From Mucidula mucida (Eukaryota > Basidiomycota > Agaricomycetes > Agaricales > Physalacriaceae): a stretch of 64,000 nucleotides of DNA. The translations under genes and the position numbers were made by a program. Positions 10,450 through 37,100 of the stretch are shown here, in pieces (the first letter of the stretch is position 1; the number at the start of each line of letters is the position of its first letter). The notes below the pieces were generated by a model. That model had not been told where the DNA came from. It made no database searches and saw only the letters and a list, made by a program, of their open reading frames with translations. The stretch lies in NCBI GenBank assembly GCA_015501055.1, contig JADNYV010000033.1:230495-294494 (forward strand). Direction: 5' to 3'.

Positions 10450-10487
10450 TGTACCTATTCTGCCTATCATGTACATTGCTATGTAAA

Positions 10488-12297
10488 TCAATATGGATAA
10501 TCTGTCTGGGGTTTCTCGTCGGCGCCTAGCAAACCATCTGCGATTTGCTTCTGGTGGTTTTCATCGAGGTAGGGCAGAATCTGCGCGGCGAATCGATCTC
10601 TGCTCTTATACCTACATAGCGAGAATGTCAGCAAAGGACGAGGATGTGGCGTAGAACCAAAAACGTACTCGGCGACATCCTCTGGCCAGCTTCGAATGGC
10701 GCTCGCCATTCTACCCGGCACGCCGATTTCTTTGACTAGTTCTGTCACCGGCTCGACGTATGTCCTCACAGTAAACACGATAGCGCCAGTCTTCGGCAAG
10801 CGGCGCAGTGTCTGCCTCTCCTGCCTGAGCGTAACATTCACCGGTTTGACGTCAAAGAGAGGCTCGTGGCCATGACCGCTAGCTTTCGGCGCGCTAGGAG
10901 AGTCATCCTGCGCTCCGAGGCCACTCCCAGGCTGAAATAGCTCCTCCTTGCCAACCATGGTCTCTGCCCAGCCTATCTCGGTGGGATCGAGAGGTTCGAA
11001 TGGTCCGCCCGCGCTCGCGGGGTCTTTTACGACGGCAAAGTGGTAGTTGTTGCGCTGGATGAGCTTTTCCGGCGTGAGGCGATGCATGAAACGATTCATA
11101 CTCGTTCGCAATTTCTGTTGGTCTTCGGATTGTGGGTAAGCGGGGAACTTTGGAGGAGGGAGGGACTGTGGCGTACATACATTGTGGGACATTGCCAGAG
11201 AAATGTATATCGTCGAGTGACATTCCTATTTTGTCCTCTAGGCGCCAGAATCCTGAGTAGAATAGAATGGGATGCGTCAACAGATGGATGCAGAGGGAAT
11301 GTACCAACCAGGTAGTATTATCGCACCAGCGCGAATGTAGTAGACACCATCATTTCCTGAATGCACAATGAGAAATGGGACATTCAGAGGGAAAAACACT
11401 TGAACCTTCGAGTAAGAGCGCGATGTCGTCTTGAATTCTAAGAGGACAGACATTCACCGGTTTATCCGTCACTGTTCCATTGAAACACTCACAACAGTCC
11501 GGCAACAGTCATAGGATCTTCTTCCTCGAGGTCGTACGTCGCATTGACAGGTATCATAGTAATTCTGCGAATACGGCCTAGTCGTCGTTCAACGCTGTAT
11601 ATCTTTGGATATCTCCTGGACAAGTATTCAGCAAGTTCTTCCACAAGTTCAGCCGCTATTATGGGGAGATTCAGTCATGGTCACATTAACCGTCGCTTGA
11701 GGGCGACAGACCTGCGGCGCGCCCGTCTACTTTGACAATATCACTGGGCGGTAAGGCCATGACGAGTTTTGAACCCCGGAGATTGACGCGATGCACGCGG
11801 ATACGATGGAAGTGGGGAAGCTGATCGTCCACCTATACGTGTACTGCTTCAATGCCATTGAAGCGAGCGGGCGGGCGGCATGGTTTCTTACCTCTATCCA
11901 CGACTCGAAGCCGATACTGCGAATGCCCATCGTCACGCTGGCGAGTCAGAGGATGTCACAAATTGGGAAATGCTAAGCCTGAGTACTAACTGATAGTCCC
12001 CCCATCTAAAAGGCCGATAGGGAACTGGTTTCATCTCCTCCACCTGCTTCAGGCAAGGGTCAATCCTAGGATAGATGTACGCTGTCGAGCCATCTTTATC
12101 TGTATTTAGATATTAGAGCTCGACGCAGCTGCCTGCTTGCGCCTACCTTTGTTTCCCTTCTCATCCACTGGACTGATAGCACGGCGCTTGGCTGGACGGA
12201 GCTTCGTATAAACCAGGAGCGCAATCGATATCGCGCACAGGCAGACGACGAGGTGGACTTGGTCAAAGAGCATTGTCTTGCGGTGGTGCTTGTCCAA
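10488..12297 (-). CDS. DUF3445 (heme-dependent oxidative N-demethylase-like) protein 1
   Basis: The N-terminus carries a membrane anchor (LVVCLCAISIALLVYTKL) and a basic linker. The family body follows: IRSIGFESWIEV, a DLPPSD-like segment (LVMALPPSDIVKVDGRAAG), LVEELAEYLSRRYPKIYSVE, IQDDIALLLEG, and, near 10800-11190, RNNYHFAVVKDP and the motif LRQERQTLRRLPKTGAIVFT. The C-terminus ends RFAAQILPYLDENHQKQIAD. DUF3445 members include the heme-dependent oxidative N-demethylases and dimethylamine monooxygenase subunits, which use O2 to remove methyl groups from secondary or tertiary amines. The coding region is split by at least six short introns. Fungal members are usually annotated as HRQ family proteins. 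The substrate is inferred, not shown. Confidence 0.75.
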
Positions 12298-12514
12298 CGT
12301 TCATACAGGTGTACTTATTACGACTGCAGGTCCCATGGCTCCGGCAGAAGCATGCAGCGGAGATAAGGTTTGGAGGTGCAGTGCGGCGGAATTCGTTGGA
12401 TTCCATCAGGGAGAGCCACACCCGAGATAAGCTCGAGCGTTATTTCGGAGGAGTTCGTCTGTTCATGGTAGATGCGATCGAAATAATGACTTACCGTAAC
12501 GGGACACTTCCGCT

Positions 12515-12564
12515 CTACGTGGTTTTCCCACTAATCTTTCTACGTGGTTTTCCCACTAATCTTT
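12515..12564. repeat. 25-bp perfect tandem duplication
   Basis: The 25-base unit ctacgtggttttcccactaa + tcttt occurs twice back to back (12515-12539 and 12540-12564), between the start of DUF3445 gene 1 and the stop codon of DUF3445 gene 2. It looks like a recent slippage or replication duplication in intergenic sequence. Confidence 0.9.
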
Positions 12565-12654
12565 CTGGTATTATCTCTGGCCTTGCGCAGCAGTCCCTTA
12601 TCATGCAACCCCGAATTTTATGGACAATTCATTGGACGTGCACCCTGTTTAATA

Positions 12655-14236
12655 TTACACCATATCAACCATTCCTTCTTCCGTCTCCGTTGGCTTGCTC
12701 AAGGTCGTCTGAGGGTTCGGAACTCGACCATCCTTCACCAAAGCCCTAAAGTCTGTGACTTTGTCCAGATCGCTTTCACTGGATGCCAATCAACTTCTCG
12801 TGTATCTCAACACCGAGATAAGAACTCACGAGATGAGCCCCAGGTCCAGCTGTCGCTTCGTGAGCTCCTGAAGATAGGGAAGCATGCGGTCCTTGTACGC
12901 GGCGTCCAGTTTGTACTGCTCCCAGATGCATCAGTTTCCTACTTCACTTCAGTCTAGGCTGTCTACCTCCATTAGAGCCTTGTCTCCTTCAAGATGAATC
13001 TTGGCGAGTAACGCTGGTACAAGTGGCGTCTCCACTAGGTCTTCCAGGCGCTTCAACATCACATGCCTGGAAATCAGGAGTTAAAGCAATCACAAGGTGA
13101 ATGTATGGTACTTACACTCCAAATGCAATACCGTTGGAGCGTGGAAGTTTGCGAAATGTTTGGTGGTCCATTCGCATCCACATGTCCTTCGGATGGACAC
13201 TGTCGCTCATCTTCTGGGTCGTCACCATGTTGTCTGTTGAAGTATTCGTTAGCACATCGCCGACCGAAATCGCGAATGAACTTGCGCCAAAATAAGTTTC
13301 GATCATCCACCATTGTCCAACTCGTCCTTTCGAAGGGTTCGGTCGCCTTGAATTTCTTCAAAGTACGTTCGACGCTCATCAGGATCTTCTCGTTGAAATA
13401 AGGAATTTCGCGGTGAACCACTTCAAGAGGTTTGCCGATATAGTTTGAAAGCAGGTAAAAACCTATAATCATGTCAACGAAACAGGTTGGTTTGGTATGA
13501 ACTTCACTGACCAGGGAACGCAATCAGGCCTCCCACAAAGTAAACGTGCCCGTCTTCGCGAGCGCGGCCCATCAGAAAGTCGTCTTGCACAAGGCGAGAT
13601 ACGACCATGAGCGCGTCCACTCCGCTCTTTCCAGTGATATCTTCGAACCGTTCTCCCGTGACTTTGTTGTGAATCCCAACCGTTCCAATCGCGTCAAAAA
13701 GAGTCGGATACCGTTTAGGTAGGTAATCGACGAGAGTCTCTAGCAGTTCAGCGCAAGCATCGTCGTTTTCCGGGAGGGAGTCAATGACGATCTTCCCTGG
13801 GTAATATCAATCAACATATGGAAAGGATCTACATGGCGTTCACACCAACCTTTCTCCTTGATGACCTTCGCCTTTTGATCTAGGTACCACTTGTAGTCTT
13901 TGTCGATTTCTATCCAGTCGTTGATGTGCATGGGCTGATGAGCCATGGTCTGACCTCCGCGTGAGTGCTATCTTTGACGCCGCAAGACCGTTACCTTACC
14001 TGGAAATACGGAAAGCGCAGTGTCTTGTTCACGTAGATATGGTTCCTCGTATGCGCGGTCTCCATATCAAAGTCCAAGTACGGGTCCGGATCTGGAGGAG
14101 AAGTTGACGCTTTCTCATCATTCTTAGCGGCAATCGCAGGTGTTCGTTTGTGAGCAGCAGGACGTCTGTAGATAGCGTAGACAAGGCCAGAGACGATACA
14201 GAGAGCAGCGGCTATGTGCGTCCATGTAAACATCAT
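12655..14236 (-). CDS. DUF3445 (heme-dependent oxidative N-demethylase-like) protein 2
   Basis: The start MMFTWTHIAAALCIVSGLVYAIYRR is a membrane anchor of the same kind as in gene 1. It continues with NKTLRFPYFQ, MHINDWIEIDKDYKWYLDQK, then LLETLVDYLPKRYPTLFDAI, LVQDDFLMGRAREDGHVYF, IGKPLEVVHREIPYFNEKIL and RMDHQTFRKLPRSNGIAFGV, the counterpart of the RQERQTLRRLP motif. It ends LPYLQELTKRQLDLGLISS and, after an intron, KVTDFRALVKDGRVPN, with the stop at 12655-12657. At 13206-13250 the reading frame changes across a CTAAC branch-like site and an AACAG acceptor, which implies a very short intron (about 31 nt) or a lost base. It lies tail-to-head with gene 1 and divergently from the Rieske gene (662 bp between starts). 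Confidence 0.75.
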
Positions 14237-14898
14237 GTTGGTGTGGAAGTACGCGTATTACCACGTAATCTGCGCTTGGAGAGGTTATGCCTGAGGTCAC
14301 AGGGCTACGGCTGCGACATGCAGACAAAGATAGTCGGGAGAAGCAGGGCCAAGTGTGTGAACTGGATGGGGAGAGCGAAGCATGTCTTGAGCGTATCTAG
14401 CAGATAGCGTTAACCACACGCCGGGGAATTCCTGGAAATCATTGATAGAAACTGAACCATCAGGGAATGCGGAATTCGCAAAGTCCGACTGGATACGGAT
14501 GGTCGAGAGAGGAAAGAGACCACAATGATTCCGTTTCGGGCTCAGTTTATATTCAAAATTGGTACGTCATCCAGGTCAAAATACCTTCCCCACAAACCGC
14601 CAACCGCAAGCCCACTATCTGTCGCTGTCAGAATTTGCTTCCTCTCTCATAAATGGAGAAACCCCTCGCGGAACACCAATTCCGCAGACTCTGTCCAGGC
14701 TGCTTTGCTCCATTCCCTATCTCCTGGATTACTATGACTTGCAAAGCCTCCGTATTGGGTCTGAATTACTCCGTCCTGCATCCATCTATCTCCTGAAACT
14801 CGCCTGTGGCCAATGTTTTGACCACATGAGCCTTTATAACGCCCGATAAGACGCTTCAAGAACCAACCCCAGTTCTTTCGAGCCCTCCACTGACCCAT

Positions 14899-16743
14899 AT
14901 GCCTGTGCCCACCCAAGTAGCTCTTCTCCTCGTCTCCTCAAGCTGCTTTGGATTCACCGTGCTTGTAGACGAGAACGTCAACCTTCCCTCCGCCTGGTAT
15001 CGCTCTGACGCGATTTACCAGCTGGAAAGACGCGCCATCTTCTCCAAGAAATGGTTATTCCTGTGCCACACGAACGTTCGTTTTCTTTAATATTGATACT
15101 GTCACCTATCTAATCATTTTCCCCAGCGCTTCACAAAGTCGGGCGAATATATTCGCTTCAAGATTGCTGGCTACAGTTTCTTCGCCATCAAAGACCGTGA
15201 AGGGAAGATAAACGCGTTCCACAATGTCTGCCGCCATCGTGCGTTCCCCATCTTGGGCAGCAAGAAGGAGGTCAGTACAAAATCACGTTCATTGCCTGCT
15301 TCCTCACTTCCTTAGGGCGAGCATGACCCCTTGGTGGAGCCAGGCCAAGCCACAATCCTGGCCTGCAAGTTCCACGGCTGGAGGCAAGTACCGTCCCTTG
15401 CGCCTCTTCATCCCGAGGCTTATTGAATTTCTACCCTAGTTATACAATGCAGGGGAAACTAGCTAAAGCTCCTGGCTTCAAAGACGTCGAAGGCTTCAAA
15501 CCAGAAGAAAACGGGCTATTCGAAATCAGAACGCACATCGACAAACTCGGGTATCTTTATATTAACATGGACACGTACGTATACGCTTCCCCCCCCCCCC
15601 TCTCCGTTCAAATAACTGAATTGCGCCCTTAGATCAGATGACTATATCAAGTGGCACGAGCAATTTGGCGACGTCGACTCCCAACCCAGGGTGCACGGTT
15701 TCCCCATTGACAAGTACAAGTATGCGTTCAGCTGGTCATTTGAGAACTGTGAGTGGTGCCGGGGAGCGTCACAGGTTGTTGTATCTTTCTGACATTTACC
15801 TTCTAGGCGATTATAATTGGAAGACTCTTGTGGATAATGTGGGTATCCATCTGTCCACCCTTGACTAGCATACGAACTGACGTTGCCCGTAGTACAACGA
15901 ATGCTATCACTGCAAAGTTGCCCACCCTGGCATCGCTAGCGTACGTGAAACTGGATGTACATCTCTTTAACCTCAAGTCTGACTCGCCATAGACTGTCGA
16001 CTTGAAATCGTACTATGTCCAAGGCTCAGATAGCTATGTCGCGCATTTCTCTCCTCCCAAGCCCGAGAATGTACAGAAGCAAGAGGACGGATCTATTGTG
16101 GCGACTTTCCTCTTCCCTTATGCTGCGTGAGTTGGCTGGTTTGATTATACTGCACCACCCTGACATCGTTGGTAGTATCACATTGATGCCCTCCTATGCC
16201 TACACGATGCGTGTCGTACCGATTGATGCCCACAGGACAGAGGTAAGGTTCACGCTGCTCGCCCCATATTTTATCTGAACCTCCTTAACTAGATGCAATA
16301 TGATGTGTATCGTCCCACAGACGCGACGGATGAGGCGTTTGACGAGACTCACAAATTCTTCGTCCAGGTCGAGGAGGAAGATAAATTCCTCTGCGTAAGT
16401 TCGCCTTTGAGTATCCACCGACGCATTCCTAACATCTACATGTAGACCAACGCCCAGAAGAATATGGAAGCTGGTCTTTATCGGACCGGTGCTTTGCATC
16501 CTGTACGATACCGCGTTTTCATCTTTTGCTACGCTCACAGCGTATATACAGAAACAAGAACACGGCGTCTTGTACTTCCAAAGCCTCGTCAAGAACGCGC
16601 TCATGTCCCATCGAAAGCAAGAAGAAGAAGCGGGACGAGAGATATTCCCCGCGTTACAAGATGGAGGTGCCATGACCAAGGAAGAGATCTTCTGCAACAA
16701 GCTCGAGTCGGCGTGTGGGACACCAAAGCATCTCGAGTGGTGA
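14899..16743 (+). CDS. Rieske non-heme iron oxygenase, choline/glycine-betaine monooxygenase-like
   Basis: The protein has [20 protein letters not shown] at its N-terminus and a Rieske [2Fe-2S] motif split over exons: CRHRAF near 15233, then ACKFHGW near 15360-15385, giving C-x-H...C-x2-H. The mononuclear iron site is [15 protein letters not shown] (15835-15940), the E-x2-H-x4-H type typical of the choline monooxygenase/GbcA/carnitine oxygenase branch. The C-terminal catalytic domain continues with [19 protein letters not shown], then [20 protein letters not shown] and [15 protein letters not shown]. Eight or more introns of 45-60 nt interrupt it; one near 15590 contains a C10 run. Known relatives hydroxylate or demethylate quaternary amines with electrons from a separate reductase, and none is visible in this window. 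It is divergent from DUF3445 gene 2. Confidence 0.85.
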
Positions 16744-17019: not shown

Positions 17020-18815
17020 TCACACCGCCGTTTCCGACTTCTTCAGCCTGACCCAGCTATTCCCATCGGCAGGTGCATCTCCGGAATTGCTCTCCACGTC
17101 AGCTTCAGAGCCGGCTTCGGACGATGTATCTTCTTCATGCTCATCCGGAACCTCGACCGTTTCGATGATGTGGACTTGAGGAGGCGGAGGAGGCGGGACA
17201 GCCGTTTCAGTTCGAGGCAAAGTAGGAGGGGGCCGAACGAATGGCTGGACGGGAAGTAAAGCATTCCGCGCCGAGATGAGAAGATGCGGGATGCTCAATA
17301 GAGTATCCAAGATGACGGACGGTAAGAAGGAGGCAAACTTGTACGTGTGGGCTCCGGCCCCCATGGAGAATCTCTCTCCCCTTAACCAGTTACGCAGACG
17401 ACCGAGGCCGATATTGAAGCCCAGGAGGGTAGGTCCGAATTGCCCATTGCTGACAACATTGACCATGGTATTGATGAACACTTTGACGTTTGTCGGCTTC
17501 CTCGGTACACCGTAGTGCGCCTCGTCATGAAACATACCTTTCAGGTTTTCCCACTTTGAACGAGGCGCTCTGTAATGGTGGGAAAGCGCAGCAAAGCCAG
17601 CACCGTATGTCAACTTCTCCGAAACACTCCAGCGCTCCATGGATTTGTACACATCCTCCGGAGCCATGGAATGAGATGCATCGGTCTCAAAGGAGCCAAT
17701 ATCTGCAACGACGAGCTTGATATTCTTCATGGCATCAGATTTGCCAGTCAAGGCAGCTACAGATATTTCTCTCCGTAAGACTTCCGTGGCGCGCAATGTT
17801 CCCGCTGCTGAAATGGATTGCATAGATGAGAAGGGCAGTCCGACGCGAGTTGCAGTAGCCGGGAGACAGACAACGATGGTCTTTCTCTTGTTGTCTTGGG
17901 AGGAGACATTGCGAAGAAGGGGAAGAATGGACTGAATGATCTGGAGCGGAGTGATCTGGGTCGCGTTGAGATACGGCAGATAATCAGAGGCTAGTGACAC
18001 GTTTTCGAATGGTGCGTGAATGGGGGGTGGAATGAGAGAGAGGAGGGAGATGACCGAGTGGATTGGGGCAGGCGATGATTCGAAAGGATCTCCTGGTGCG
18101 TTGATTGGGAAACGACGCAAAAGAGCCTGAGCGACCGAGCGCAGGAAGACAGGGATAGCAGCAGGCTATACGACCGTTTAGCAGATAAATGGGTGTGGAT
18201 GGGTACACATACCTCGGTGGGATCCAACACCAATGCACGAACACACCCACGGCTCTGCCTTTCAAGATCGTCTGCTCCACGGGGCGTAGCGACGCTAGCA
18301 ATGACAATATAACCCTTGCGCTCCAGATCCAGGACAAGGGGCAGACCGAGCGCAGTGTCAGCGCCGAGCACGACTGCAAGACAGAATTGAGACCTAAATT
18401 ACCAAGTAGGGGTGCACTTACTGATAACCTGCTTGCGCTCCAAGGCCAGCTCTTTGAGTCGCCGAGCGCGCACAGTCCTCATATAGGTGCCTCCATAACC
18501 AACTAGCAGGCCTGTGCCTATGACTCCGACGACAGCTCCGCCAGCCTCCCATGGATGCCTCTCGGCCCACGCCAACGAGTTCTCGTACCACGTCGGTGGC
18601 GGCGGTGGAGGCGGGGGCGGTGGCGGGAGCTCAAAGTCACCGAGGCTGGGGAGTCTGTCGATAATCTGAGGCATGTGGACCGGTCCATAGCGGGTAACGT
18701 CCAGCCAGAGCTGATTCAACCGTTCTTGTATCTTGGGCAAGTCCGGAGTCGCAGCGCCGACCGAAGAGAAGAATGTATCCTCGACCTCCTCGAGGAATTC
18801 TGCGATTTTGTCCAT
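17020..18815 (-). CDS. DUF1776 family protein (SDR-like fold, membrane anchored)
   Basis: The N-terminus is MDKIAEFLEEVEDTFFSSVG. A proline run at about residues 65-76 follows, then a membrane segment (GGAVVGVIGTGLLVGYGGTY), the start of a Rossmann-like unit (VVLGADTALGLPLVLDLERK) and a long C-terminal domain with KTIVVCLPATATRVGLPFSS and LGRLRNWLRGERFSMGAG. The tail is acidic and Pro-rich and ends RLKKSETAV with the stop at 17020. The order matches the fungal DUF1776 family, which resembles short-chain dehydrogenases; its reaction is not established. Two introns lie at about 18374-18423 and 18163-18213. The frame is clean. Confidence 0.8.
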
Positions 18816-19012
18816 CGTGGTGAACGTCGAGCTTTAAACGACGGTATCGGTGCCGGAAATGCGATGGCAATTAGGCAACACGGCGGCCCGATCCCTCCGC
18901 TGTGGCGCACCTTCGGAAGCAATAGACGCTCCCCAAGCGAAAATTTCCACGTCTCCTTAATGAGCTGCAATCAGGCTGCAATACTGGTCTTCTCCAAGCC
19001 AATGAAGGGCAA

Positions 19013-24090: not shown

Positions 24091-25056
24091 CTACCCAGAA
24101 AACCTAGATTTCTCAACACCTTTCACCCCCCACTTCTTACCAATGTCAAGCATAAATAGCTTCCCGCCATCTGGACCTCCCACCCCATGTCTTGTACCAG
24201 TCGTACACACCAAAAGCCCAAGATCGTCGCCTGCCCAGCCAGGGCAGGTCACATAAGGAACGCCCTCTGCAACAACTTCGCGTAACAGCCGGCCCTCTGG
24301 CGAATAACACAACACACATCCCTTTCCCCAAATTCCTATCCATATATTCCCCTCCGCGTCCAACACCATGCCATCCGGCTCACCGCCTTTGTGGTTTTGC
24401 TCCACCGAGCTGGTATCAGTGTCTGGCCGGAAGTCCAAGAACACTGAAGGAGTGCCCAGAGTACCCCGCTCCTCATCAAACGCGTATCTTCTTGTTATAA
24501 GACCATACGAGTCGTTGTGGTACATCCACTTGTTGTCAGCGGACCACGCAATGCCATTAGAGCAGTACAAGCCAGATGCATGCTGGGTGACCGTTCCGTC
24601 GGGATCACAACGATACAGGTTCCCGCCTGGTGTACTAGTTGTGCCGCCGAGTGGTAACCCGATGGCTTCATGGTCCATGGTACCTGCCCAGAACCGTCCT
24701 TTCGAGTCCGAAGCGCCGTCATTGAATCGCAGCTTCCCGCGAACGGCGTCGGAAAGGACTTGAACAAAGTTCTCCAGCACGCCGGTTTGCTCGTCGATGA
24801 ACGCAAATCCAAGTGTGCCAGCGGCGATGTATCCGGGGCGCCCTTTCATGAAGGACGTTACTGTGATGACATCGGACAAGGTGAGAACACGGAGCTGCTT
24901 GGAGGCGAGAGAGAGGATGTGGATCTCTGGCGGGTCAGCGAGAGGAATGACATAATGCAATGTATCGTCCGATGGACGGTAGATGGGTGCTTCGCCTAGG
25001 ACACAGTGCGAGTCGAATAAAGGCTCGCCAAAGGTGGCTATTTCGTGGTTTGTCAT
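24091..25056 (-). CDS. SMP-30/gluconolactonase-like six-bladed beta-propeller protein
   Basis: This is an intronless 321-residue protein, the usual length for the family. It has the early LFDSHCVLGEAPIYRPSDD (the metal-binding Glu in GEAP), RFNDGASDSKGRFWAGTMDH (Asn-Asp pair and blade motif), GLYCSNGIAWSADNKWMYHN (second conserved Asn, N-G-I-x-W) and GGEPDGMVLDAEGNIWIGIW (PDG...D catalytic region). Members hydrolyse sugar lactones or related esters with a bound divalent metal, usually Ca or Zn. No signal peptide is seen, so it is probably cytosolic. The frame is clean, and the gene is divergent from the ABCF gene. Confidence 0.9.
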   Translation of the reverse strand: MTNHEIATFGEPLFDSHCVLGEAPIYRPSDDTLHYVIPLADPPEIHILSLASKQLRVLTLSDVITVTSFMKGRPGYIAAGTLGFAFIDEQTGVLENFVQVLSDAVRGKLRFNDGASDSKGRFWAGTMDHEAIGLPLGGTTSTPGGNLYRCDPDGTVTQHASGLYCSNGIAWSADNKWMYHNDSYGLITRRYAFDEERGTLGTPSVFLDFRPDTDTSSVEQNHKGGEPDGMVLDAEGNIWIGIWGKGCVLCYSPEGRLLREVVAEGVPYVTCPGWAGDDLGLLVCTTGTRHGVGGPDGGKLFMLDIGKKWGVKGVEKSRFSG

Positions 25057-25524
25057 GGTGGAGAACGAGCTCTATGCTCAGCCGTGAGAGTGTGTTACGA
25101 GCGCATGTTTCATGCTGCCGTGAGCGCTCACTAAAGGAAGAGCAATCAAACACGTTCAATTTGCTACCTGATGACTTCGTTTACGATGCTGGCGAGAGGT
25201 CTTAACCGACGGCTAACATTTTGAGCTTGGATTTAGATGCTCTACTACTCCAGCATCAGTAGCTAATGTTTTTCTACCTCTACAGGCGGGAACGCTGGTT
25301 GAATTGATTGTCCAGTTTGTTGGATGGCGGAGCCGGTCGAGTCAACAACACACTGGGGCGTGTTCAAACATGATAGTTGAGAGCAAGCTGAGAGGCAAGA
25401 TCGATGCGCATCCTCGGTCCGATCTGCCGACTTGCTTTCATTCACTCAACGCGAGTCAACGTCGGCTCCGTTCCCGCACAAACATGGTTCTTGTACGCTT
25501 TCTCTATGCGATGCAAGAGTACAA

Positions 25525-27837
25525 ATGCCGACATCCGACACGCTCACCGTGACCGCCGCCCAGAGCCGCTTCCACAGTGACGCCGCCAACGTTCCCGCCA
25601 CGAAAGAAATCGACGTACACGACCTCAGCATCTCCATTGGCGGCAAGGAAGTGCTCGCGCATGCCGAGTTCAAGCTCCTTACAAACGTCCACTATGTCCT
25701 TGTTGGCCGGAATGGAGTTGGAAAGTCAAGTACTAGACTACCTCTCAAATCCCAAATAAAGTCTAACAATGTATAGCCCTGATGCGCGCATTGGCTGAAG
25801 GCAGAATTCCAGGAGTTTCATGGGGCATACACATGCTCCTACTTGGTCAAAATATTTTGGTGGGCACTGCACTCGATCCCGACGCGCAGAACAACGAATC
25901 GTCGATGACTGTCGCTCAGTATGTCGTCAAGAGCGATGCGCGCCGACAACGCGCGCTCCAGCAACTTGAAGGTACGTGTATTAAAGCATGCCGCGATCGC
26001 CAAGTTGATGACTTCTCTAGTTCTAACCAAAGTCTTGGAATCCGCCGAACCTTTGGACATTGTCAGAGCGGTTCGCCAACTTGACCACGAAGATATTGAG
26101 CGCAAGATTGCTGAACAACGCGAAATTGCTGGGTACAGGAGTAATGCTCGTGGCGCCAAGGCGCGAAAGGAGCTGGTCGCCGCGGAGAAGAGACTCGAAG
26201 AGTCAACAAAATTGCAAGTCTTGTAAAGCTCGAGTCCGATTCTCCCACTCATGTTATGATAGACAGACCAACAATGATGCTGACGCGTCTGAAATACAGA
26301 AAGCGTCCGGTGCTGCCTTGGCAAGACTCTCAGAGATCGAATCTCTTTTAGAATCTGTAAAACAAAATCTTCGAGGCATACAGAATAAGTCACTGATCAT
26401 CATGCTCAGATCAACTCCGGTAACGCAGAAGCTCGCGCCAGAACTATTCTGCTTGGTCTTGGATTTCCCACAGACAAAATCGACCAACCTTTCACGTCTC
26501 TTTCCGGCGGATGGAGAACACGCTGTTCCCTCGCATGCGCCCTCTTCCAAAAGGTCGACATTCTCCTCCTAGACGAATGCACAAACTTCCTCGACCTCCC
26601 TGCTGTCATCTGGCTACAAACGTACATCCAATCCCTCATCGATACGACCGTCTTGGTGATCACCCATGATCACGACTTTGCCGATGCTGTCGCTGGTGAA
26701 CTCCTCGTGCTGCGGGAGCAAAAGCTCGAGACGTTCAAGGGCAATCTCTCGGCATACGAGCATGAGAAGCGGAATCAGATCAAGAGGATGACGCGTCTCA
26801 AGGAAGTAGCAGACAAGAAGACCTCCCATATGGAGGATACGATCCAAGGCAACATTGCTGCTGCGAAACGGACGGGAGACGACAAGAAGTTGAAACAGGC
26901 TGCGTCTAGGAAGAAAAAGATTGAAGAGCGGTCTGGGTTGGAGGTCGGGATGAAGGGCGGGCGATTTAAGCTGAACAGGGACCTGGGAGGGTTCCATGTC
27001 AAGAATCGTGCGGATCTTGATGTGCCGAGTGTCGATGCGCCGGCGAAGATGACGATCCCGCTGGACCCTCCGCCGTTGAGGTTTCCTGGTGCGCTTCTCA
27101 GTATGGAGCATATCTCATACGCGTACCCAAATGCAAAAACAAGGATCTTATCTGACGTGACGCTCGCCATCCATCCTGGAGAACGCATTGGGCTATGCGG
27201 ACTGAACGGATCTGGCAAGTCGACGCTCGTCAACGTCGCTCTGGGTATTTTGAAGCCCTCGAGTGGGACCGTCACGCTCCATCCACGCGCGCGTGTGGCG
27301 CATTTTACGCAGCACGAGGTGGAGAAGCTCACTGCGCTCCGTGATGACACGACGACGGCTTTGTCCCACGTTATGGCTTCTCACACCAATCTAAGTGAGT
27401 TTACAGCCCGGAAAGTTCTCGGCTCCCTCGGCCTCTCGGGTCGGATGGTAACCGACGTCCCCCTCGCACATCTCTCGGGTGGGCAGAAAGTGCGCGTCGC
27501 GCTGGCTACGTGCGTCGGGGAAGAGGCGCCCCATTTACTCGTACTGGACGAGGTGACGACGCATTTGGATACGGACACGATTAGGGCTTTGGTTGAGGCG
27601 TTGAGAGGATTCCGGGGTGCGCTTTTGGTTGTTACGCACGATCGGTATTTTATGAGAGGTGTGGTTGAGGGAGAGGTTGAGGATGATGATAGTGATAGTG
27701 ATGATCAGGGGCGGGGAGATGTTGGTGGTGGGAAAGTGTATAGGGTGTTCAAGGGAGGCTTGAAGGTGTTGGATGGGGGGATGGGCCGTTATGAAGAGAT
27801 TGCGGAGAGGGCTGCAAGGAAGCTGAATGCGGGATAG
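25525..27837 (+). CDS. ABCF-type ATPase with two nucleotide-binding domains (translation-associated)
   Basis: Five exons (25525-25729, 25777-25971, 26021-26217, 26267-26356, 26410-27837) join in frame to 704 codons; the introns are 47-53 nt. Domain 1 has Walker [10 protein letters not shown], signature [13 protein letters not shown] and Walker [13 protein letters not shown]. The linker is rich in Lys/Arg and helical. Domain 2 has Walker [10 protein letters not shown], signature [13 protein letters not shown] and Walker [13 protein letters not shown]. There are no membrane helices, so this is a soluble ABCF protein of the GCN20/ARB1-like group, which acts on ribosomes or in ribosome biogenesis. 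The start at 25525 is chosen because it precedes the first conserved domain without a stop; the third intron has a non-standard GTCTTG donor. Confidence 0.85.
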
Positions 27838-28042: not shown

Positions 28043-30636
28043 TTAGTTACCATTGACCACCTTCTTCGGGATTAGCGCCAACTTGCCCAAGGCGCATATT
28101 ACCGCCTTGATACCAGAAGTAGTAATATCAGCATCGGTCGCAACACCCCACCCGCTGCGCTTCTTCTCCCCAACTGGCTCATACAGCAACTCCACATACG
28201 AAGCCGCAACGACCTCCGCGCCCTCGCCAATAGAGTGCTCAGAGTACTCGCGGAGAGTAAGCCCTCCCTCGACAAACGCCGAGATCGCGCTCAACGTCGA
28301 AGATAACGGTCCATTCCCCTCTCCTCTCACGCTCCTCACAACCCCAAAAAGGAAAAACTCGCCCGTCAAAATCCGCGTCGTCGCATCCACATGCTCCAGC
28401 GTGAACGTCAGCACCGAAAACTGCGACGTCGCCTTGATCACATCGTAGTCGTACGTCTTCTTGAACAGCTCCGTCAGCGCCCCGATGGATATCTCCCCGC
28501 CCGCATCCCGCGCCGCGCGCTGCACCACCTCGAAAAACGCCGCCTGGAAGCGCCGCGGCAGCTCGAGCCCCAGCGAGTTGACAATCACGCTCGAGATATC
28601 CGCTTGCCCCGATTTGGCGTTGAACCCAACGGTCAGCTTCAGCTCGGGCAGCTCCATGTCGCCAATGGCGTTGTTCGCCGCGCTGAGGACAGCGCGTAAG
28701 CCCGCACCAGAGATATCCGAGTCCGAGCCCACGCCCCACCACGACTTGGTGGATTTGCGGTCGCCAGCGGGGACGAGCTCGATGTACGCTGCTGCGCGCG
28801 AGTTCTGCCCCTGCTCCGCGTCAAGCGTGTGCTCAGTGTACTCGCGGAGGGAGAGGTCGATGTGGAGGTGCGTGCGGAGGGCGTCCAGCAGGGCGGATAG
28901 AGGTCCGTTGCCGTCTCCACGGATAACACGCAGGACGCCATCGACGTTGAGAGTGCCGTCAAACCGCCGGCGCTCGTCTTCGTCGCCCGAATTAGGATCC
29001 GCGCTCGGTTCGTGGAAATCTTGAAATGTCGCAGTGACAACCTGCCCTTGTACTTGGGCCCGCCAAAGTGGTACGTCTGGCGAAAGGCCGTCGTGATATC
29101 GTCGACAGTCACTTCGCGCGCTTCCCGATCCGAAATGGCCTGGATGACCTGGTAGAACGAGATCTGCATCTTTCGCGGCATATCGAGCTGTAGGTGCTGC
29201 TTAATAAGATACGCGATGCCTCCCTTGCCGGACTGGGAGTTGACACGGATGACCGCTTCGTAGGTCAAGCCCAGGTCAGCGGGGTCAATGGGTAAGTAGG
29301 GTATATCCCAGTACTGGGGCTCGCCCTTGGCCGCTGCCTCTGTGTGGCGTATCTTCTGAGCCTCGAAGCCCTTTTTGATGGCATCCTGATGTGAACCGGA
29401 GAATGCGGTAAAGACGAGTTCGCCTGCGTACGGATGGCGAGGGTGAACGGGGAGGTCATTACATTGGGTAACGACATCGATAACGGATTGGAGATCGCTG
29501 AAGTCGAGGCCGGGAGATATGCCCTGGGAGTACAAGTTGAGGGCCAAGTTGACGAGATCCACGTTGCCGGTTCGCTCTCCATTTCCGAAGAGACAGCCCT
29601 CGACCCGGTCTCCACCAGCAAGCATACCAAGTTCTGCCGACGCGATTCCGGTTCCTACAATACGATGGCAATTAGAAGACGAATAGTATTGGTAGCTTGT
29701 TTAACGAACCTCGGTCATTATGTGGATGTAAACTCACATAGACCTTTTCGCGTTCAGAAATATTGGTGCAGAAATATTCAATCTTGACATGTCATCAATT
29801 TGAATGAAGGAAGAGCAGAAATACGGCATGGAAATGCGCACCTGATCTGCATAATGATTCGGAGGAGCAATCTCCACAGTCGACGGCAGATTGAAGATGA
29901 TTCTGTTCTCAAACTCTGGGCCAGCCTTCCCCCACGCTGCTTTCACTGCTTCGCACACCTCCAGCGCAAAGTCAGGCTCAGTCTGAGTAAAAGTCTCTGG
30001 ACTGTACTCGTAGCGGAACTTGGTCCCAGTCTTCGCGGTACATTCTTCCGTCAACTTCCTGACGATTTTAGTGTGGGACACGGCGAGTTCGACGGTCTTT
30101 TCTTTTGAATTCCGGAAAACGACGTTGCGAAATGTGGGTGAAGTCGCGTTATACATATGAAGGATTGCATGCTTCGCGCCGGCCACGGAGTCAATTGTTC
30201 GTTTAATGAGGTCCTCACGGGCAGGTGTTAGCACCTACAGAACACATGCTCAATAACAGAATAGACGATGAGCGGGGGAAATGACCTGTATCCAAACGTC
30301 GTCTGGGATTTCGTTGTTCTCGATGAGACCGCGAACGAACATGAAGTCCGTGTCACTGGCGGCGGGGTAGGACACCTCAATTTCCTTGACGCCAGACTTG
30401 ATGAGTTGCCTAAAGAAGGTGGTCTTTTGCTCGATGGTCATGGGATTTGCCAGCGCCTGGTTTCCATCGCGGAGATCAGTAGAGAGCCAGATGGGAGCTT
30501 TTGTGAAAGTTTTGGAGGGCCATTGACGATCCTTGAGATTCAAAGGAGTGTACGGCTTGTACTTTTGGGATGGATCTGGCCTGGATTGACATTAGTACTG
30601 GAAAAGAGGGAATTGGGCGACATACAGCATTGGCAT
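28043..30636 (-). CDS. LEU4: 2-isopropylmalate synthase with an extra C-terminal regulatory-type unit
   Basis: This enzyme condenses 2-oxoisovalerate with acetyl-CoA, the first committed step of leucine synthesis. Exon 1 is only 11 nt (MPML, 30626-30636). Then come [20 protein letters not shown] (HMGL-like barrel, catalytic R-D-G-N-Q), [11 protein letters not shown] and [14 protein letters not shown] (metal-binding H-x-H-N-D). The linker unit [20 protein letters not shown] leads to a leucine-feedback region with [16 protein letters not shown] and [17 protein letters not shown] second, related unit follows: [20 protein letters not shown] ... [18 protein letters not shown] ... [20 protein letters not shown], to the stop at 28043. 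Fungal enzymes are usually about 600-650 residues; this is roughly 200 longer. One base appears missing near 29045 (frame change after GPKYKG). Divergent from GluRS. Confidence 0.85.
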
Positions 30637-31054: not shown

Positions 31055-33583
31055 ATGGCGACGTTGACGCTTTCTTCCAAGCTCGCGCCTTTTCCTTTCG
31101 CTGTGATTGCTATCGCGGCTTATACTCAAAAGGCGGAACTCGTATTTGACGACGCAGCAACAGGCCCGGTACTCGAGCTGAATGGATCCCAAATCACCGC
31201 TGAGCAGGACATTGTACACGCTCTGGCAAAAGAAGGCGGTCTATCCGAAGACAGTGCAAAGGTGCGACCGTTTCCAGATCTCAATCTGGTTCTAATCGAT
31301 CTGTTAGGCTGCGTCATTCTTTGCTCTCGCCAAAAACTTGAATACCGTCACTGTCGTTTCCGAAGTTATCACTGCACTCGATTCTCTCGACGATCATCTC
31401 GCTTATCGCACTTTTCTCATCGGACATGCCGTGACGGCATCTGACTGGATGCTATGGGGCACCATCAAAGGCAGCATCAAAATCGTCGGATTGCTCAAAA
31501 ACAACAAACACGCCCACCTTAACCGCTGGTTCTCCCATCTCGAATCTCTAGAATCCACTCAAACCGCTCTGACTGCATTGATCTCCGCTAAAGCATCCAA
31601 GGCTCGCTCTAACAAAGTTGCTGCTGGATTCGCGCTTGGTCTTGAAGGTGCAAAGATGGGTGAGGTTGTGACGCGCTTCCCGCCGGAGCCCAGCGGTTAC
31701 CTCCATATTGGCCACGCCAAGGCGGCGATGCTCAATCAGTACTTTGCACAAATGTACAACGGCAAGTTGATCATCCGCTTCGATGACACGAATCCCAGCA
31801 AAGAAAGGGTACGTCCTACGTTTCTTCATTTCAGACCTTTATCGATCATAGCCTTTCAGACTGAATTGAGGACACCATTTTGGAGACCTGCTATGTTGGG
31901 AATCAAGGGCGATATTATCACTCACACGTCGATTACTTTGCGACGTTGTACGACTATGCTCTCAAAGTCATCAAAGAGGGTAAGGCGTACACGGATGACA
32001 CTGAACAAGCTCAGGTACGTACAGTTTGATTGTTAAGCCCGTAATCTCAGCAATCAATTAGATGAGGACGGAGCGCTTCGATGGCATCGCCTCGAAACAT
32101 CGTGACGATAGTGTCGAGGACAATCTCAAGCACTTCGCCGAGATGACCGCCGGTTCTGAGGAAGGCCTACGTTGGTGTCTACGGGCCAAAATGAGCGTGG
32201 ACGACCCCAACAAGGCGCTACGTGATCCTGTCATTTACCGATGCAACACCTTGCCTCATCACCGTACTGGGTAACATAGCATACTTCCATTACTTTGGAT
32301 GCGTTCACTCACGTTCTTTCAGTGACAAATGGAAGGTCTATCCTACCTACGACTTTGCTTGCCCCATTGTCGACTCCATCGAAGGCGTCACTCATGCTCT
32401 TCGTACAAACGAGTACCGCGACCGCAATCCGCAATATTGGTGGATGACCGACGCCGTGGGCATCCGCAAGGTCAAGATTTGGGACTTTAGTCGGCTCAAC
32501 TTTATCTACACCCTTCTTTCGAAGCGCAAACTTCATGACTTTGTCAACCGGGGCATCGTGCGTGGATGGGATGACCCTCGCTTCCCTACCGTGCGAGGAA
32601 TTCGGAGGAGAGGACTGACGATCGAGGCACTGCATCAGTTTATGCTTATGCAAGGTCCTTCCCAGGCTATCGTCTCGCTAGAGTGGGATTCCATATGGGC
32701 GATGAACAAGAAGGTTATTGACCCCATTGCGCCTCGTCATTGGGCAATCATCGAGGCAGACAGGTAAGGATTCTGGTTATCTGCAAGGGCGTCTGCTTGA
32801 ACTATGTATAGGGTACCCGTCACTGTCAAGGGTGCTCCTACAACACCGGAGGTCAAGAACCTCCCGAAGCACAAGAAAAACCCCGAGATTGGCGAAAAGA
32901 AGACTGTCTATTCGTCTAATATCCTTGTCGATCAAGAGGATGCGTTATCGTTTGAGGATCAAGAAGAGGTATCTCTGTCACTTTGTTCAGAGTGCGGTGC
33001 CTGAAAGGACTATCTAGGTTACCTTGATGGACTGGGGCAACGCTATCGTCCGATCCAAGACCCTCGACGCGTCCGGCAAAGTAACCTCCATTGAAATGGA
33101 GCTCCACCTTGAAGGCGACTTCAAAAAGACGAAGAAGAAGATAACCTGGCTCGCGCAGCCCACGGACGCGCTGCCGCTCATCCCTGTGACACTCTTGATT
33201 ACGACTACCTCATCACCAAGAAGAAGCTCGAGGAGGGCGACGACGTTGTGGAGTTTACCGCGCCCGTGTCCGAGTTCCGGGAGAGCGCGCTGGCTGATGC
33301 GAATGTCAAGGACTTGAAGAAGGGGGATTATTTGCAGTTTGAGAGGAAGGGGTATTTCATATTTGATGGGGAGGGTGGGGATGGGAAGATAGAATTTATA
33401 AGGATTCCGGATGGGAAGGCGGCGGGGTTGGCGAGTAAGGCTGGGGTGGCGGCGGCGGCTACGCCGAAGGAGATAACGACGCCTGCGTCGAAGATGTATA
33501 GTGTGGACAGCATCTATGGGGACCAGGTCCCGCCTGATGTGGACACGAAGATGTATAAGGTGGAGAGTATATACAAAAACTGA
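31055..33583 (+). CDS. GUS1: Cytosolic glutamyl-tRNA synthetase
   Basis: The enzyme charges tRNA-Glu in the cytosol. An N-terminal GST-like domain (to about residue 190, including [19 protein letters not shown]) is followed by the class I catalytic core: [20 protein letters not shown] (HIGH motif), [64 protein letters not shown] (KMSKS counterpart) and [16 protein letters not shown]. The anticodon-binding barrel has [16 protein letters not shown]. Introns include 31262-31307 and those near 31807-31857, 32014-32060, 32271-32324, 32764-32811 and 32970-33018. Single bases seem to be missing near 31867, 31890, 31935 and 33196, although flanking residues are highly conserved. As the enzyme is essential, assembly error is the simpler reading. 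A decayed 3' relic lies at 48.8-49.2 kb. Confidence 0.85.
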
Positions 33584-34109: not shown

Positions 34110-37100
34110 TTCAAGCAGGACTATGGTGTGCAGCCGATTTGCGGCCAAGTAATGTCCGCCAAGATTTGAAGATGCTAGGTGTACTCTCAGAATCCAGTTG
34201 CGGCCGGACCCACTGTGGCGGAACGACCTACGAAAAAAAAAAAAGTAAGTGGAGTTTCCGCTCTACTTCTCGAGATGTAAACATGCTCTTACCTGGCTCA
34301 AATCCTCTTTCGGTTTCGTGTACACCGGAGGCACAGTATGATTACGCTTCAAATCTCTCGCAAACGTCGTGATCAAGGAGGGCAAATCTTGAAAAGGTCG
34401 ATAATGTACGCGTCTGTATGAATGCACATCAACATGCACGGTCACTTTGGCCTCGTCATATTCATCTGCCATGCCGACGCAAGCAACGAGCCTCGCTAAG
34501 TCTGCGATGCACGCAGAGCAAGTGTCGCTTGAAATAGTTTCCGCCAAATTCCACAACATATTCTGCGTGTCAGAGTCACCAAAGAGAAGGATCTTGCTCA
34601 GCGTTGACAAGTGGGCAGGTGCCTCGATGTATTCTCTTGCTGCTGAAAGCGCTTTCGAAGTAGCGTCGCTGGATGATAGTCCATTCAGATAGGTCACAGC
34701 CACATAGACGTACCCTGGACGCCAACGTGCTGGAAGCGTTTCCGCTTCTGAGGTGGCTGAATGAGACAGACGCGAAAAACGTGCTCCAATATCGCGCAAC
34801 CAATCCTCGCGAACAAGATACGCATATATCGTTTCCGTCGCAAAGGAATGGGTCGCGAAACACGAGACATACGTGAAAATATGAGCGAGCAGTTCCCATC
34901 CGTTATCCACAGCTCCAGATTCAAGCGCAGAGGTAGCTACGTGCCATATCTTCTTGAACAGCGTCGGAGTAAGCCACGATGCGTCGCGATCCCCAGAGGC
35001 GGCGGCGATCTGGAAACGGCGGTTGAGCCCAGCAAAGAGAATCTCGACAACGAAGCCTTTGTCCGCCAGAGTCATGACAGTACTGGATTCAAAGACGTCG
35101 GACTTGGTTACAGTCTTCAGTGCAGATAACGTCGCTCGGTCAACGTCCAGATGTGCGCTCCAGGGACCGAGATTGAGAGCGTACGCTTCAGCGACCATCA
35201 AGACCCTATGGAACAAAGACTGAGGAGGTTCTGGGTAGCCCTGGATCATGACGTATCGGAAGAGAGCATTGTTTTCTGAGTAGTCGTCTCGAGAGCAGAA
35301 GAGGTGGCCTGAATAGAACGAGTTTGCAGCAGTGTAAGTACCAGAAGAATATCGTCGGGGAGATGCTGACTAAAGCCCAAGATGCGTCGTTTCTCAGGCT
35401 CCAGGGCATGAGGGAATCCAACATGAAGTAGCCATCTTATGAATGATGGCTGCATATTAGAAACCAAAGCATCGCGCAACGTGTTTGACGTTGCATTTTG
35501 CTCCACATTATACACATTCACGACGAGCGGGAACTTCTCCGGCCCGAGGGAGTAAGAAAACAGGTCTTTCTTGTCCCCATCGCAATTGAAGGAAGAACAG
35601 TCGTGCTCAATGACAGCGCCCTTCAGAAGCTGACACCAGATCGAAGACGGCGGGTCATCACCATGAGAAGAGTCAATCTCCAGGAAATCCAGTCCAGACT
35701 GCAGAGCGACTTCAAACAGTTTGCCCCAAAACAAGACATCGACTCCGCCATCTGGCCTCGTAAAGTTCCCTTCAGCAAGCAAGTCATCACTAACAGCTTT
35801 GATGACAAGATCAAGGGACTTGTTGATGGTCCCATACTTGCTCGGATGAGCATCGAGCATGTCAAACTTGCCAAAGCGTAATGCTCCACGCTGAAGCCTT
35901 TCCAGGCGTTCGACAGGCTGATCATAACGATGGTGGGCCCTTATAGCGCGTACCACAGCAGGCCTATCCTCATCTTTCTCCGCGACAAAGTCACGGCAAA
36001 GCCAAACGCTAGGGTCCGATACCGGAGCCGTTATGCCTTTGGGACTTGTCATGACACCGATACTCTGCAGCGGAAGGCTTCCCAAAGACTGTACGACGAT
36101 GCTATGCACAGAAGCATTTGAAGATGTGTTGTGGAGCCATGAGAGAGACAGCGCGTCGAGGTTATCTGCTTCACGTGTGATAGCAACGCGCTCTACATCT
36201 TTCAGAGAACGAGATGTCGGTGAAGCGCGATGTAAGCGCAACGAGGCGAAACACCGGCGTACCCAGCTGACGAGCCTAAAGGTGTACAATGCCAAAGGAG
36301 TCTTATATGGGCAGTTTGCGTAGAGCAGTGGGAGAAGATTGCTAACAAGATAGGCAAGCGCTCCGACACCTGTCAAGCATCCCAACGAGGCAGCCATAGC
36401 CACGTCCAACGAACAAAGGAATATGGTGAATCCAGCAAAGAATACGCCGAGTGAGATGTGCATAAGGACAGGGAGGAGCCCGATAATGAGGGGAACATGC
36501 CACTGCTCCAGTCCAACAAATCTGAAGTGTCGGATACGAGAACGGTCCTTTGGGGTGCCGGAGGGGAGGATCATGTACTCGTTTATCCATTGTTTCGTCA
36601 AGACCGCAACCAGTGTGGTCGTCAAACTGAGTGCAAGACTAGTGAACCACATGCCATTGATCCATCGATCAACTGATTTAGCCTTGAAAGAGGCAGAAGG
36701 ATCCAAATTCTGGACGGCGACTTCATTAGCAGAGGTACCCTGGGAAATGGCGACTTGAACGTCGATCAAGCGCAGTATCAACGTCGTTGTGACCGCAGCG
36801 TAATCCACGCGAAGACTTTGACAAGTTTGCACGACAAATGTCGTCACAACCGCGGAGAACAGAGCTGCCTAGTTCGAAATACATCAGAATTGAGGTTTTC
36901 AATTGAGCTACTAGTATGTATCCGAACTTACAAATACCAGGAGCATGTCAAGACCGTCTCTCCAGTTCTCGACCATGTCGAGGTCGAACTTCGTACACTC
37001 GTCCATGTAGGTCTTATAGAACCTGCTTCGTTCGGATAATTCCTTGAATTCTTCGTCTGGTGGATATTTCTGCTCATAGTCGAAAGGATCTAAAACGCGG

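What the first reader, a model, noticed from the sequence alone, without database searches (positions are those of the whole stretch)
10488..16743. Putative N-methyl-amine catabolic cluster: two membrane-anchored DUF3445 proteins next to a choline/betaine-type Rieske oxygenase
The sequence shows two tandem DUF3445 genes and a divergent Rieske oxygenase with the E-x2-H-x4-H site of the quaternary-amine branch. Known DUF3445 relatives are heme-dependent oxidative N-demethylases and dimethylamine monooxygenase subunits; known Rieske relatives include choline monooxygenase and GbcA glycine-betaine demethylase. Together they could strip methyl groups stepwise from betaine or similar substrates, a pathway I do not know to be described in mushrooms. 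An MCT-like transporter lies 3 kb away. The substrate, the reductase and co-expression are inference.
Basis: partly seen in the sequence, partly recalled or inferred. Interest (0 to 1): 0.75.

Follow-up and report, generated by a model that had tools for sequence, protein, structure and literature searches.

The report
Mushroom methylated-amine oxygenase gene trio
A wood-rotting mushroom carries, side by side, two membrane-anchored relatives of a bacterial haem enzyme that strips methyl groups from amines and one iron-sulphur oxygenase of the kind that attacks choline- or carnitine-like compounds; together they may break such compounds down for nitrogen, which remains to be tested.

Summary
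In Mucidula mucida three intact, intron-rich genes lie at 10487-16743: A and B (minus strand, PF11927/DUF3445, N-terminal membrane helix) and R (plus strand, Rieske oxygenase), B and R diverging from a 662-bp gap. A and the orthologue of B fold like the bacterial haem N-demethylase HODM; the His at HODM position 194 is kept in 242 of 242 aligned sequences. A-type proteins keep HODM Glu266; B-type ones carry Asp. R keeps all Rieske and iron ligands; its closest solved relative is carnitine monooxygenase CntA. It has the aromatic residue of 'group Va' (carnitine, choline, benzalkonium enzymes), not the Asn of 'group Vb' N-demethylases (GbcA, Stc2). A groups with Russulales, away from the native Agaricales copies (AU p 4e-90); B groups with Russulales plus one Physalacriaceae species. 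This means horizontal transfer or retained old paralogues. No bacterial-type reductase was found. Substrate, cofactor and joint function are inference.

The parts
10487..12273 (-). Gene A: HODM-like (DUF3445, PF11927) protein, A-type, N-terminal membrane helix; 10 exons, 431 aa in my model (429 aa in public protein P0121)
   Evidence: splicing; Pfam; P0121; fold; residues
12655..14236 (-). Gene B: HODM-like (DUF3445, PF11927) protein, B-type (Asp at HODM Glu266), N-terminal membrane helix; 8 exons, 408 aa, one GC-AG intron
   Evidence: splicing, guided by Hymenopellis orthologue P0001 (94.6% identity); Pfam; fold of P0001
14237..14898 (.). 662-bp gap between the divergent start codons of B and R; possible shared promoter region (inference)
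   Evidence: coordinates; no promoter test was made
14899..16743 (+). Gene R: group Va-like Rieske non-haem iron oxygenase; 13 exons, 404 aa, one GC-AG intron; Rieske ligands C75, H77, C105, H108; iron ligands H211, H216, D318; bridging E208; pi-cation Y206
   Evidence: splicing; Pfam; PDB; motifs

Best explanation
The three genes form a small methylated-amine oxidation module. R, a probably soluble Rieske mono-oxygenase of the CntA/choline-monooxygenase type, oxidises a trimethylammonium compound (carnitine-, choline- or butyrobetaine-like) at the carbon next to the nitrogen and either releases the amine or makes an aldehyde. A and B, anchored in a membrane by their N-terminal helices, bind haem in a PAS fold and oxidatively remove N-methyl groups from the resulting amine as formaldehyde, so that its nitrogen becomes usable. 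Shown here: gene models, family membership, fold, conserved residues, gene order, phylogeny. Inferred: haem binding, substrate, order of steps, electron donor (perhaps the general cytochrome P450 reductase or cytochrome b5 system), co-regulation.
For: The models of A and of the B orthologue P0001 match HODM with Foldseek E 8e-19 and 3e-17; the next matches are 0.11 and 0.03. The His aligned with 5LTE His194 is present in 121 of 121 A-type and 121 of 121 B-type sequences. R's best solved relative is CntA (E 9e-37), and R keeps Y203, E205, H208, H213, Y225, Y295 and D323 of CntA. Of 120 listed R homologues 118 show the motif as I wrote it; 117 of these have Tyr or Phe at the group Va position with the bridging Glu, one has Tyr with Asp. 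B and R are divergent and A follows B head-to-tail. The trio shares one contig in Hymenopellis. A and B group with several Russulales, R with the Russulales species Stereum hirsutum. In a Rhizobium plasmid a DUF3445 gene lies in an operon with a DmmA-family protein, beside a glutamate synthase family protein and a type III glutamate-ammonia ligase.
Against: In the listings R is seldom linked to B (2 of 8 species) and A to B (7 of 42; hand-matched). Mucidula and Hymenopellis are close (91.8-97.8% identity), so their shared order is weak evidence. B departs from HODM at Trp180, Asn226, Glu266, Arg284 and Tyr286. No bacterial-type reductase was found. Three CntA pocket residues differ (N270 to T, Y315 to F, F319 to V) and F258 falls in an alignment gap. 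A bacterial DUF3445 gene from soil DNA is reported to raise salt tolerance and lower sodium in E. coli (PMC5809485, passages), a role with no evident link to amine demethylation.
Confidence: 0.4

Rival explanations
1. The A/B pair and R are neighbours without a joint pathway: A/B serve a general amine-demethylation, detoxification or stress role found across Basidiomycota, and R is a separate choline-monooxygenase-like enzyme that landed beside them.
For: A- and B-type proteins are listed for many basidiomycetes for which no R relative is among the 120 listed; R lies on another longest contig than B in 6 of 8 hand-matched species; within the listings the trio is on one contig only in Mucidula and Hymenopellis.
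Against: Divergent B-R arrangement; B and one R paralogue share a contig, two locus tags apart, in the distant yeast Rhodosporidiobolus poonsookiae (P0090 JCM10207_006947, P0255 JCM10207_006949), though that paralogue is the more divergent of its two R proteins; all three genes have Russulales relatives as near neighbours.
Confidence: 0.27
2. One reading: R demethylates glycine betaine like GbcA, and A/B strip further methyl groups from dimethylglycine and sarcosine.
For: R looks like a group V Rieske oxygenase; 4qup ('Monoxygenase; demethylase') and 3vca are also relatives (that these are stachydrine demethylases is recalled).
Against: R has Tyr206 at the position where group Vb N-demethylases have Asn. 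CntA, a group Va enzyme, is the stronger match (9e-37 against 4e-29 for 3vca). Dmm acts on dimethylamine (PMC5520151, passages), and 5lth is HODM in complex with a ligand whose name begins 'dimethylamin' in the cut title.
Confidence: 0.12
3. The genes belong to a biosynthetic or tailoring route for an N-methylated secondary metabolite, not to catabolism.
For: A protein with a HODM-like domain is among the genes brought near a putative new secondary-metabolite cluster in Sphaerulina musiva (PMC12778737, one passage); patchy distribution and possible transfer fit metabolite clusters.
Against: No backbone synthase in the 20 ORFs that I scanned of 237 stop-to-stop ORFs of 90 aa or more in the window; the rest were not scanned.
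Confidence: 0.15

Closest known systems
HODM, haem-dependent oxidative N-demethylase alpha subunit (PDB 5LTE, 5LTH, Pseudomonas mendocina)
   Same: PF11927 domain, overall fold (TM-score 0.74-0.76 by target length), His194; A-type also keeps Glu266, Trp180, Asn226, Arg284 and Tyr286
   Different: N-terminal membrane helix; about 18-19% identity; no reductase subunit found; B-type has Tyr for Trp180, Ser for Asn226, Asp for Glu266, mostly His for Arg284 and mostly aliphatic residues for Tyr286
DmmDABC dimethylamine monooxygenase (Ruegeria pomeroyi, PMC5520151, passages seen)
   Same: a DUF3445 protein is part of the like-annotated Rhizobium operon
   Different: no match in the Mucidula genome to the PDR/VanB reductase of that operon; DmmA and DmmD were not searched for
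CntA carnitine monooxygenase (PDB 6Y8J)
   Same: Rieske and iron ligands, bridging Glu, pi-cation Tyr203, Tyr225 and Tyr295
   Different: four other pocket positions differ or do not align; no Fer2-domain reductase such as CntB found
GbcA glycine betaine demethylase and Stc2 stachydrine demethylase (Rieske group Vb)
   Same: group V Rieske oxygenases acting on quaternary amines (PMC7948474)
   Different: group Vb has Asn where R has Tyr206

Membership tests
HODM alpha subunit family (PF11927) | profile match above the curated cut-off | tested here: met
HODM alpha subunit family (PF11927) | HODM fold | tested here: met
   Foldseek against PDB: 5lth E 8e-19 (A model, pLDDT 88.8) and 3e-17 (model of the B orthologue P0001, pLDDT 93.2; B itself was not modelled)
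HODM alpha subunit family (PF11927) | His194, presumed haem ligand (role recalled, not read) | tested here: met
   H230 in A, H224 in B; 121 of 121 A-type and 121 of 121 B-type
HODM alpha subunit family (PF11927) | Glu266, presumed substrate-binding residue (role recalled, not read) | tested here: inconclusive
   Glu in A (120 of 121 A-type, one gap); Asp in B (117 of 121 B-type, three gaps, one Cys)
HODM alpha subunit family (PF11927) | flavin/Fe-S reductase partner | tested here: inconclusive
   no match in the own genome with a Rhizobium PDR/VanB reductase, without a positive control; only one Fer2 match, a mitochondrial-type ferredoxin; a six-frame search across introns can miss genes
HODM alpha subunit family (PF11927) | haem content and amine demethylation | not testable with these tools
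   needs protein
group Va Rieske oxygenase (CntA, CMO, OxyBAC) | Rieske C-x-H and C-x2-H plus 2-His-1-Asp iron site | tested here: met
   C75, H77, C105, H108; H211, H216, D318
group Va Rieske oxygenase (CntA, CMO, OxyBAC) | bridging Glu205 and aromatic residue at 203 | tested here: met
   E208 and Y206 in R; definition from PMC7948474 (passages, section 6)
group Va Rieske oxygenase (CntA, CMO, OxyBAC) | oxidation of a quaternary ammonium substrate | not testable with these tools
   needs protein
group Va Rieske oxygenase (CntA, CMO, OxyBAC) | placement with named group Va and Vb enzymes in one tree | not tested
   my R tree holds only the 59 best of the listed homologues plus R
group Vb Rieske N-demethylase (GbcA, Stc2) | Asn at the position of CntA Tyr203 | tested here: not met
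   Tyr206 in R; Tyr or Phe in the 118 motif-bearing of 120 listed homologues, 2 lacking the motif
conserved three-gene cluster | A, B and R linked in related species | tested here: inconclusive
   all three on a 197,098-bp contig in Hymenopellis (P0122, P0001, P0241); not shown in other species

The most novel reading that the evidence does not exclude
A horizontally exchanged fungal module in which a CntA-like Rieske enzyme splits a trimethylammonium compound into a free methylated amine, and a pair of membrane-bound PAS-haem N-demethylases (A canonical, B a divergent and possibly heteromeric partner) strips its methyl groups for nitrogen, powered by the general microsomal reductases. This would be a quaternary-amine-to-nitrogen route of fungi and a function for the DUF3445 proteins found across Basidiomycota.
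Probability: 0.22. Interest if true: 0.8.

Novelty: new variant of a known kind. Interest (0 to 1): 0.5.

Why it matters
DUF3445 proteins are common in mushrooms, yet in the open-access library searched, none of the five papers found with the term DUF3445 gives a fungal one a function in the passages I saw. Pairing them with a Rieske oxygenase whose substrate class can be read from its active site narrows the search to methylated amines and gives a three-gene knockout and enzyme test. If right, wood-decay fungi would have a way to tap choline- or carnitine-type nitrogen, and PAS-haem demethylation would extend to membrane-bound eukaryotic enzymes.

Tried and rejected
Rejected: R as a betaine N-demethylase of the GbcA kind (Tyr, not Asn, at the group-defining position). 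Rejected: my first R model with a hydrophobic N-terminus; the Hymenopellis and Stereum orthologues indicate that this stretch is an intron, so R is probably soluble. Rejected: my first B model; orthologue P0001 showed a GC-AG intron and a different acceptor. Pfam, the PDB searches, the protein searches and the own-genome search had been run with those first drafts; later alignments and trees used the corrected models.

Tried with little result: bacterial neighbourhoods. Of 80 bacterial DUF3445 loci (the best 80 of 160 confirmed), only 2, both cyanobacterial with the same gene order, had a Rieske match in the fetched stretch, next door; it has Asp, not Glu, as bridging residue. Many of these stretches were short or cut by contig ends. 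A reductase partner was sought in the own genome and not found. The direction of a transfer could not be settled: the five Russulales-type A rows (one of them an unnamed metagenome row) stand together only weakly (68/31). Uniting the seven-row A clade with two other Russulales rows is not rejected (p 0.35).

Literature. 'HRQ family protein' and 'PF11927' gave no paper; the HODM paper (PubMed 27851736) is not held, so residue roles in HODM are recalled.

Counts matched by hand: A and B on the same longest contig in 7 of 42 species named in both listings (Hymenopellis, Bondarzewia, Rhizoctonia solani, Ceratobasidium sp. 414, Clavulina, Calocera cornea, Dacryopinax); B and R in 2 of 8 (Hymenopellis, Rhodosporidiobolus poonsookiae). 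They rest on the 120 rows listed of 157, 775 and 1116 hits, on names cut short in the output, and on equal lengths of the longest contig of a 90% cluster. Equal lengths show one contig, not adjacency; unequal lengths do not prove separate contigs where a cluster holds several strains. In Sporobolomyces salmonicolor the two proteins come from different strains. Mucidula itself is not in these counts.
Full report
What is there. The window is from Mucidula mucida (Agaricales, Physalacriaceae): gene A matches the public protein P0121 of that species, and its contig length, 294,494, equals that of the window's contig C305. Three genes lie between 10487 and 16743. A and B are tandem on the minus strand, and R is divergent from B across a 662-bp gap. 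My models have 10, 8 and 13 exons and stay open throughout. B and R were corrected against the Hymenopellis orthologues. Identity to Hymenopellis is 91.8% (A), 94.6% (B) and 97.8% (R).

The two DUF3445 proteins. Both match PF11927, the HODM alpha-subunit family, far above the cut-off. Among solved sequences, a joint profile of A- and B-type proteins finds only HODM at E up to 0.001 (4e-35); singly, A and B also reach it. AlphaFold models of A (P0121) and of the Hymenopellis orthologue of B (P0001) have mean pLDDT 88.8 and 93.2. Foldseek places them on HODM with E 8e-19 and 3e-17; the next matches are 0.11 and 0.03. In an alignment with 5LTE residues 59-334, the His at 5LTE position 194 is present in 121 of 121 A-type and 121 of 121 B-type sequences. 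I recall, without having been able to read the paper, that this His and Glu266 matter for haem and substrate. Most A-type proteins keep Glu266 (120 of 121), Trp180, Asn226, Arg284 and Tyr286. B-type proteins have Asp (117 of 121), Tyr, Ser, mostly His (100 of 121) and mostly aliphatic residues there. A therefore looks like a canonical HODM-type enzyme and B like a consistently altered sister; a separate substrate or an A-B complex are both possible (inference).

Anchors. A hydrophobic 19-residue stretch (mean Kyte-Doolittle at least 1.6) lies within the first 60 residues in 93 of 114 A-type, 83 of 118 B-type and 14 of 120 R-type listed proteins that begin with Met; 6 A-type and 2 B-type rows that do not begin with Met were left out. 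R is thus probably soluble and A and B membrane-bound.

The Rieske enzyme. R has the Rieske ligands C75, H77, C105 and H108 and the iron ligands H211, H216 and D318. The closest solved protein is carnitine monooxygenase CntA (E 9e-37), ahead of 3vca (4e-29) and 4qup (5e-29), which I recall as stachydrine demethylases. The CntA paper (PMC7948474; passages, section 6) divides quaternary-amine Rieske enzymes into group Va, with an aromatic residue at 203 (carnitine, choline, benzalkonium), and group Vb, with Asn there (betaine and stachydrine N-demethylases). R has Tyr206 at this place. Of 120 listed homologues, 112 have Tyr with Glu, 5 Phe with Glu, 1 Tyr with Asp, and 2 lack the motif as I wrote it. 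Tyr225 and Tyr295 of CntA are also kept; Asn270, Tyr315 and Phe319 are not, and Phe258 falls in a gap. R is therefore best read as an enzyme that oxidises a trimethylammonium compound beside the nitrogen, not as a GbcA-type demethylase. I did not place R in a tree with named group Va and Vb enzymes.

How it may work. In the bacterial precedents, CntA is a trimethylamine-producing enzyme that acts on carnitine, and Dmm turns dimethylamine into methylamine. Putting these in series gives the favoured mechanism: R frees or exposes the amine, and A and B remove methyl groups as formaldehyde. Only the enzyme types are shown; the linkage of the steps is inference.

Reductase. In the own genome a six-frame search found one Fer2 match, a mitochondrial-type ferredoxin, and none to a Rhizobium PDR/VanB reductase (no positive control). 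Such searches can miss intron-split genes. The general P450 reductase or cytochrome b5 system is a plausible donor for the anchored A and B (inference).

Neighbourhood in other species. The listings give contig lengths, not gene order. A, B and R all lie on a 197,098-bp contig in Hymenopellis radicata (P0122, P0001, P0241), a close relative in the same family, so this is weak evidence. A and B are near each other in Bondarzewia (locus tags EW146_g507 and g509) and in Ceratobasidium sp. 414 (FRC10_007647 and 007648). By hand matching they share a contig in 7 of 42 species. B and one R paralogue are two locus tags apart in the yeast Rhodosporidiobolus poonsookiae, but B and R share a contig in only 2 of 8 species, and that yeast's other R protein is closer to the window's R (53% against 48%). 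The trio as a unit is therefore shown only for two related genera.

Origin. In a 44-row tree A falls with Hymenopellis and five Russulales-type rows (100/99). The 20 other rows of Agaricales, Boletales, Atheliales and Amylocorticiales form one clade (99/98). Adding A and Hymenopellis to that clade is rejected (p 4e-90). So is uniting A and Hymenopellis with the other Physalacriaceae rows (p 6e-42) or with all Agaricales rows (p 2e-53), whereas the Agaricales rows without them are not rejected as a clade (p 0.24). The genome has another A-type gene on contigs C895 and C904 (stretches 99.8% identical, probably two haplotypes), which groups with the Physalacriaceae Guyanagaster and Desarmillaria (93/86). 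B groups with Cylindrobasidium (also Physalacriaceae) and, next, with Bondarzewia, Peniophora and an unnamed row (100/100). Uniting these Physalacriaceae with the only other Agaricales row, a partial and long-branched Psilocybe protein, is rejected (p 0.0008), which says little. R groups with Stereum (Russulales), Mycena capillaripes and an unnamed row (SH-aLRT 99, quick tree). The pattern suggests transfer between Russulales and Physalacriaceae, or old paralogues kept in both; direction and number of events are open. Order labels for rows other than those looked up are recalled.

Bacteria. Two of 80 bacterial DUF3445 loci, two cyanobacteria with the same gene order, also have a Rieske gene next door, but of another type (Asp bridge). 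In a Rhizobium plasmid a DUF3445 gene sits in a row of genes annotated as DmmA family, PDR/VanB oxidoreductase and aminomethyltransferase, next to a glutamate synthase family protein and glnT. This supports an amine-nitrogen role for the family at large. Against it stands a report that a DUF3445 gene from soil DNA raises salt tolerance and lowers sodium in E. coli (PMC5809485, passages).

What is in print. DUF3445 gave 5 papers, of which I saw passages: a bacterial osmotolerance gene (PMC5809485), a domain listed in soybean lipoxygenases (PMC12709120), a domain table for anemones and corals (PMC6214176), a table row of an Aspergillus niger transcriptome (PMC6320622) and a legend in a fungal gene-family study (PMC10406608). 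None of these passages gives a fungal DUF3445 protein a function. HODM terms gave 114 papers with at least one term, 25 listed, most unrelated by title. 'HRQ family protein' and PF11927 gave none. Fungal Rieske oxygenase with quaternary ammonium gave 1, on a bacterial pathway, and basidiomycete trimethylamine gave 1, on pollutants, both seen as listings. Further searches. No such cluster turned up in what I saw, but the library lacks most subscription papers.

Verdict. The substrate is unknown. Interest is moderate: it makes the function of a widespread fungal family testable, but trio conservation is shown only in two related genera.

Noticed in passing
window 17023-18165, minus (gene may reach 18833): DUF1776-like gene (PF08643, E 1e-4, 22.3 bits, under the cut-off of 25) between R and the MFS transporter; the ORF 18399-18833 had no Pfam match.
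   Followed up: partly
   Followed up: partly
window 24094-25071, 26389-27834, 28642-29700, 31308-32033: SMP-30/gluconolactonase-like gene, ABC protein with two matched ABC stretches, isopropylmalate synthase, and a class I tRNA synthetase with an Arc1p-like N-terminus.
   Followed up: no
window 35249-36868 and 40233-41639, minus: Two nearby DUF6535 genes (PF20153), probably a duplication.
   Followed up: no
window 50940-52763 and 53279-55069, plus: Two neighbouring F-box-like genes.
   Followed up: no
window 13234-13285 (B intron) and 15384-15439 (R intron): GC-AG introns in both B and R; the native A-type paralogue on C904 has one too.
   Followed up: yes
G000 C895 3906-7328 and C904 43701-47123 (L001, L002): Near-identical stretches (99.8% over 3423 bases), probably both haplotypes in the assembly; they carry the native A-type DUF3445 gene.
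   Followed up: yes
L054 7869-11523 and L084 1863-5730: Cyanobacterial DUF3445 gene beside a Rieske oxygenase; two further genes next to them look like O-methyltransferases (recognised by eye, not scanned).
   Followed up: partly
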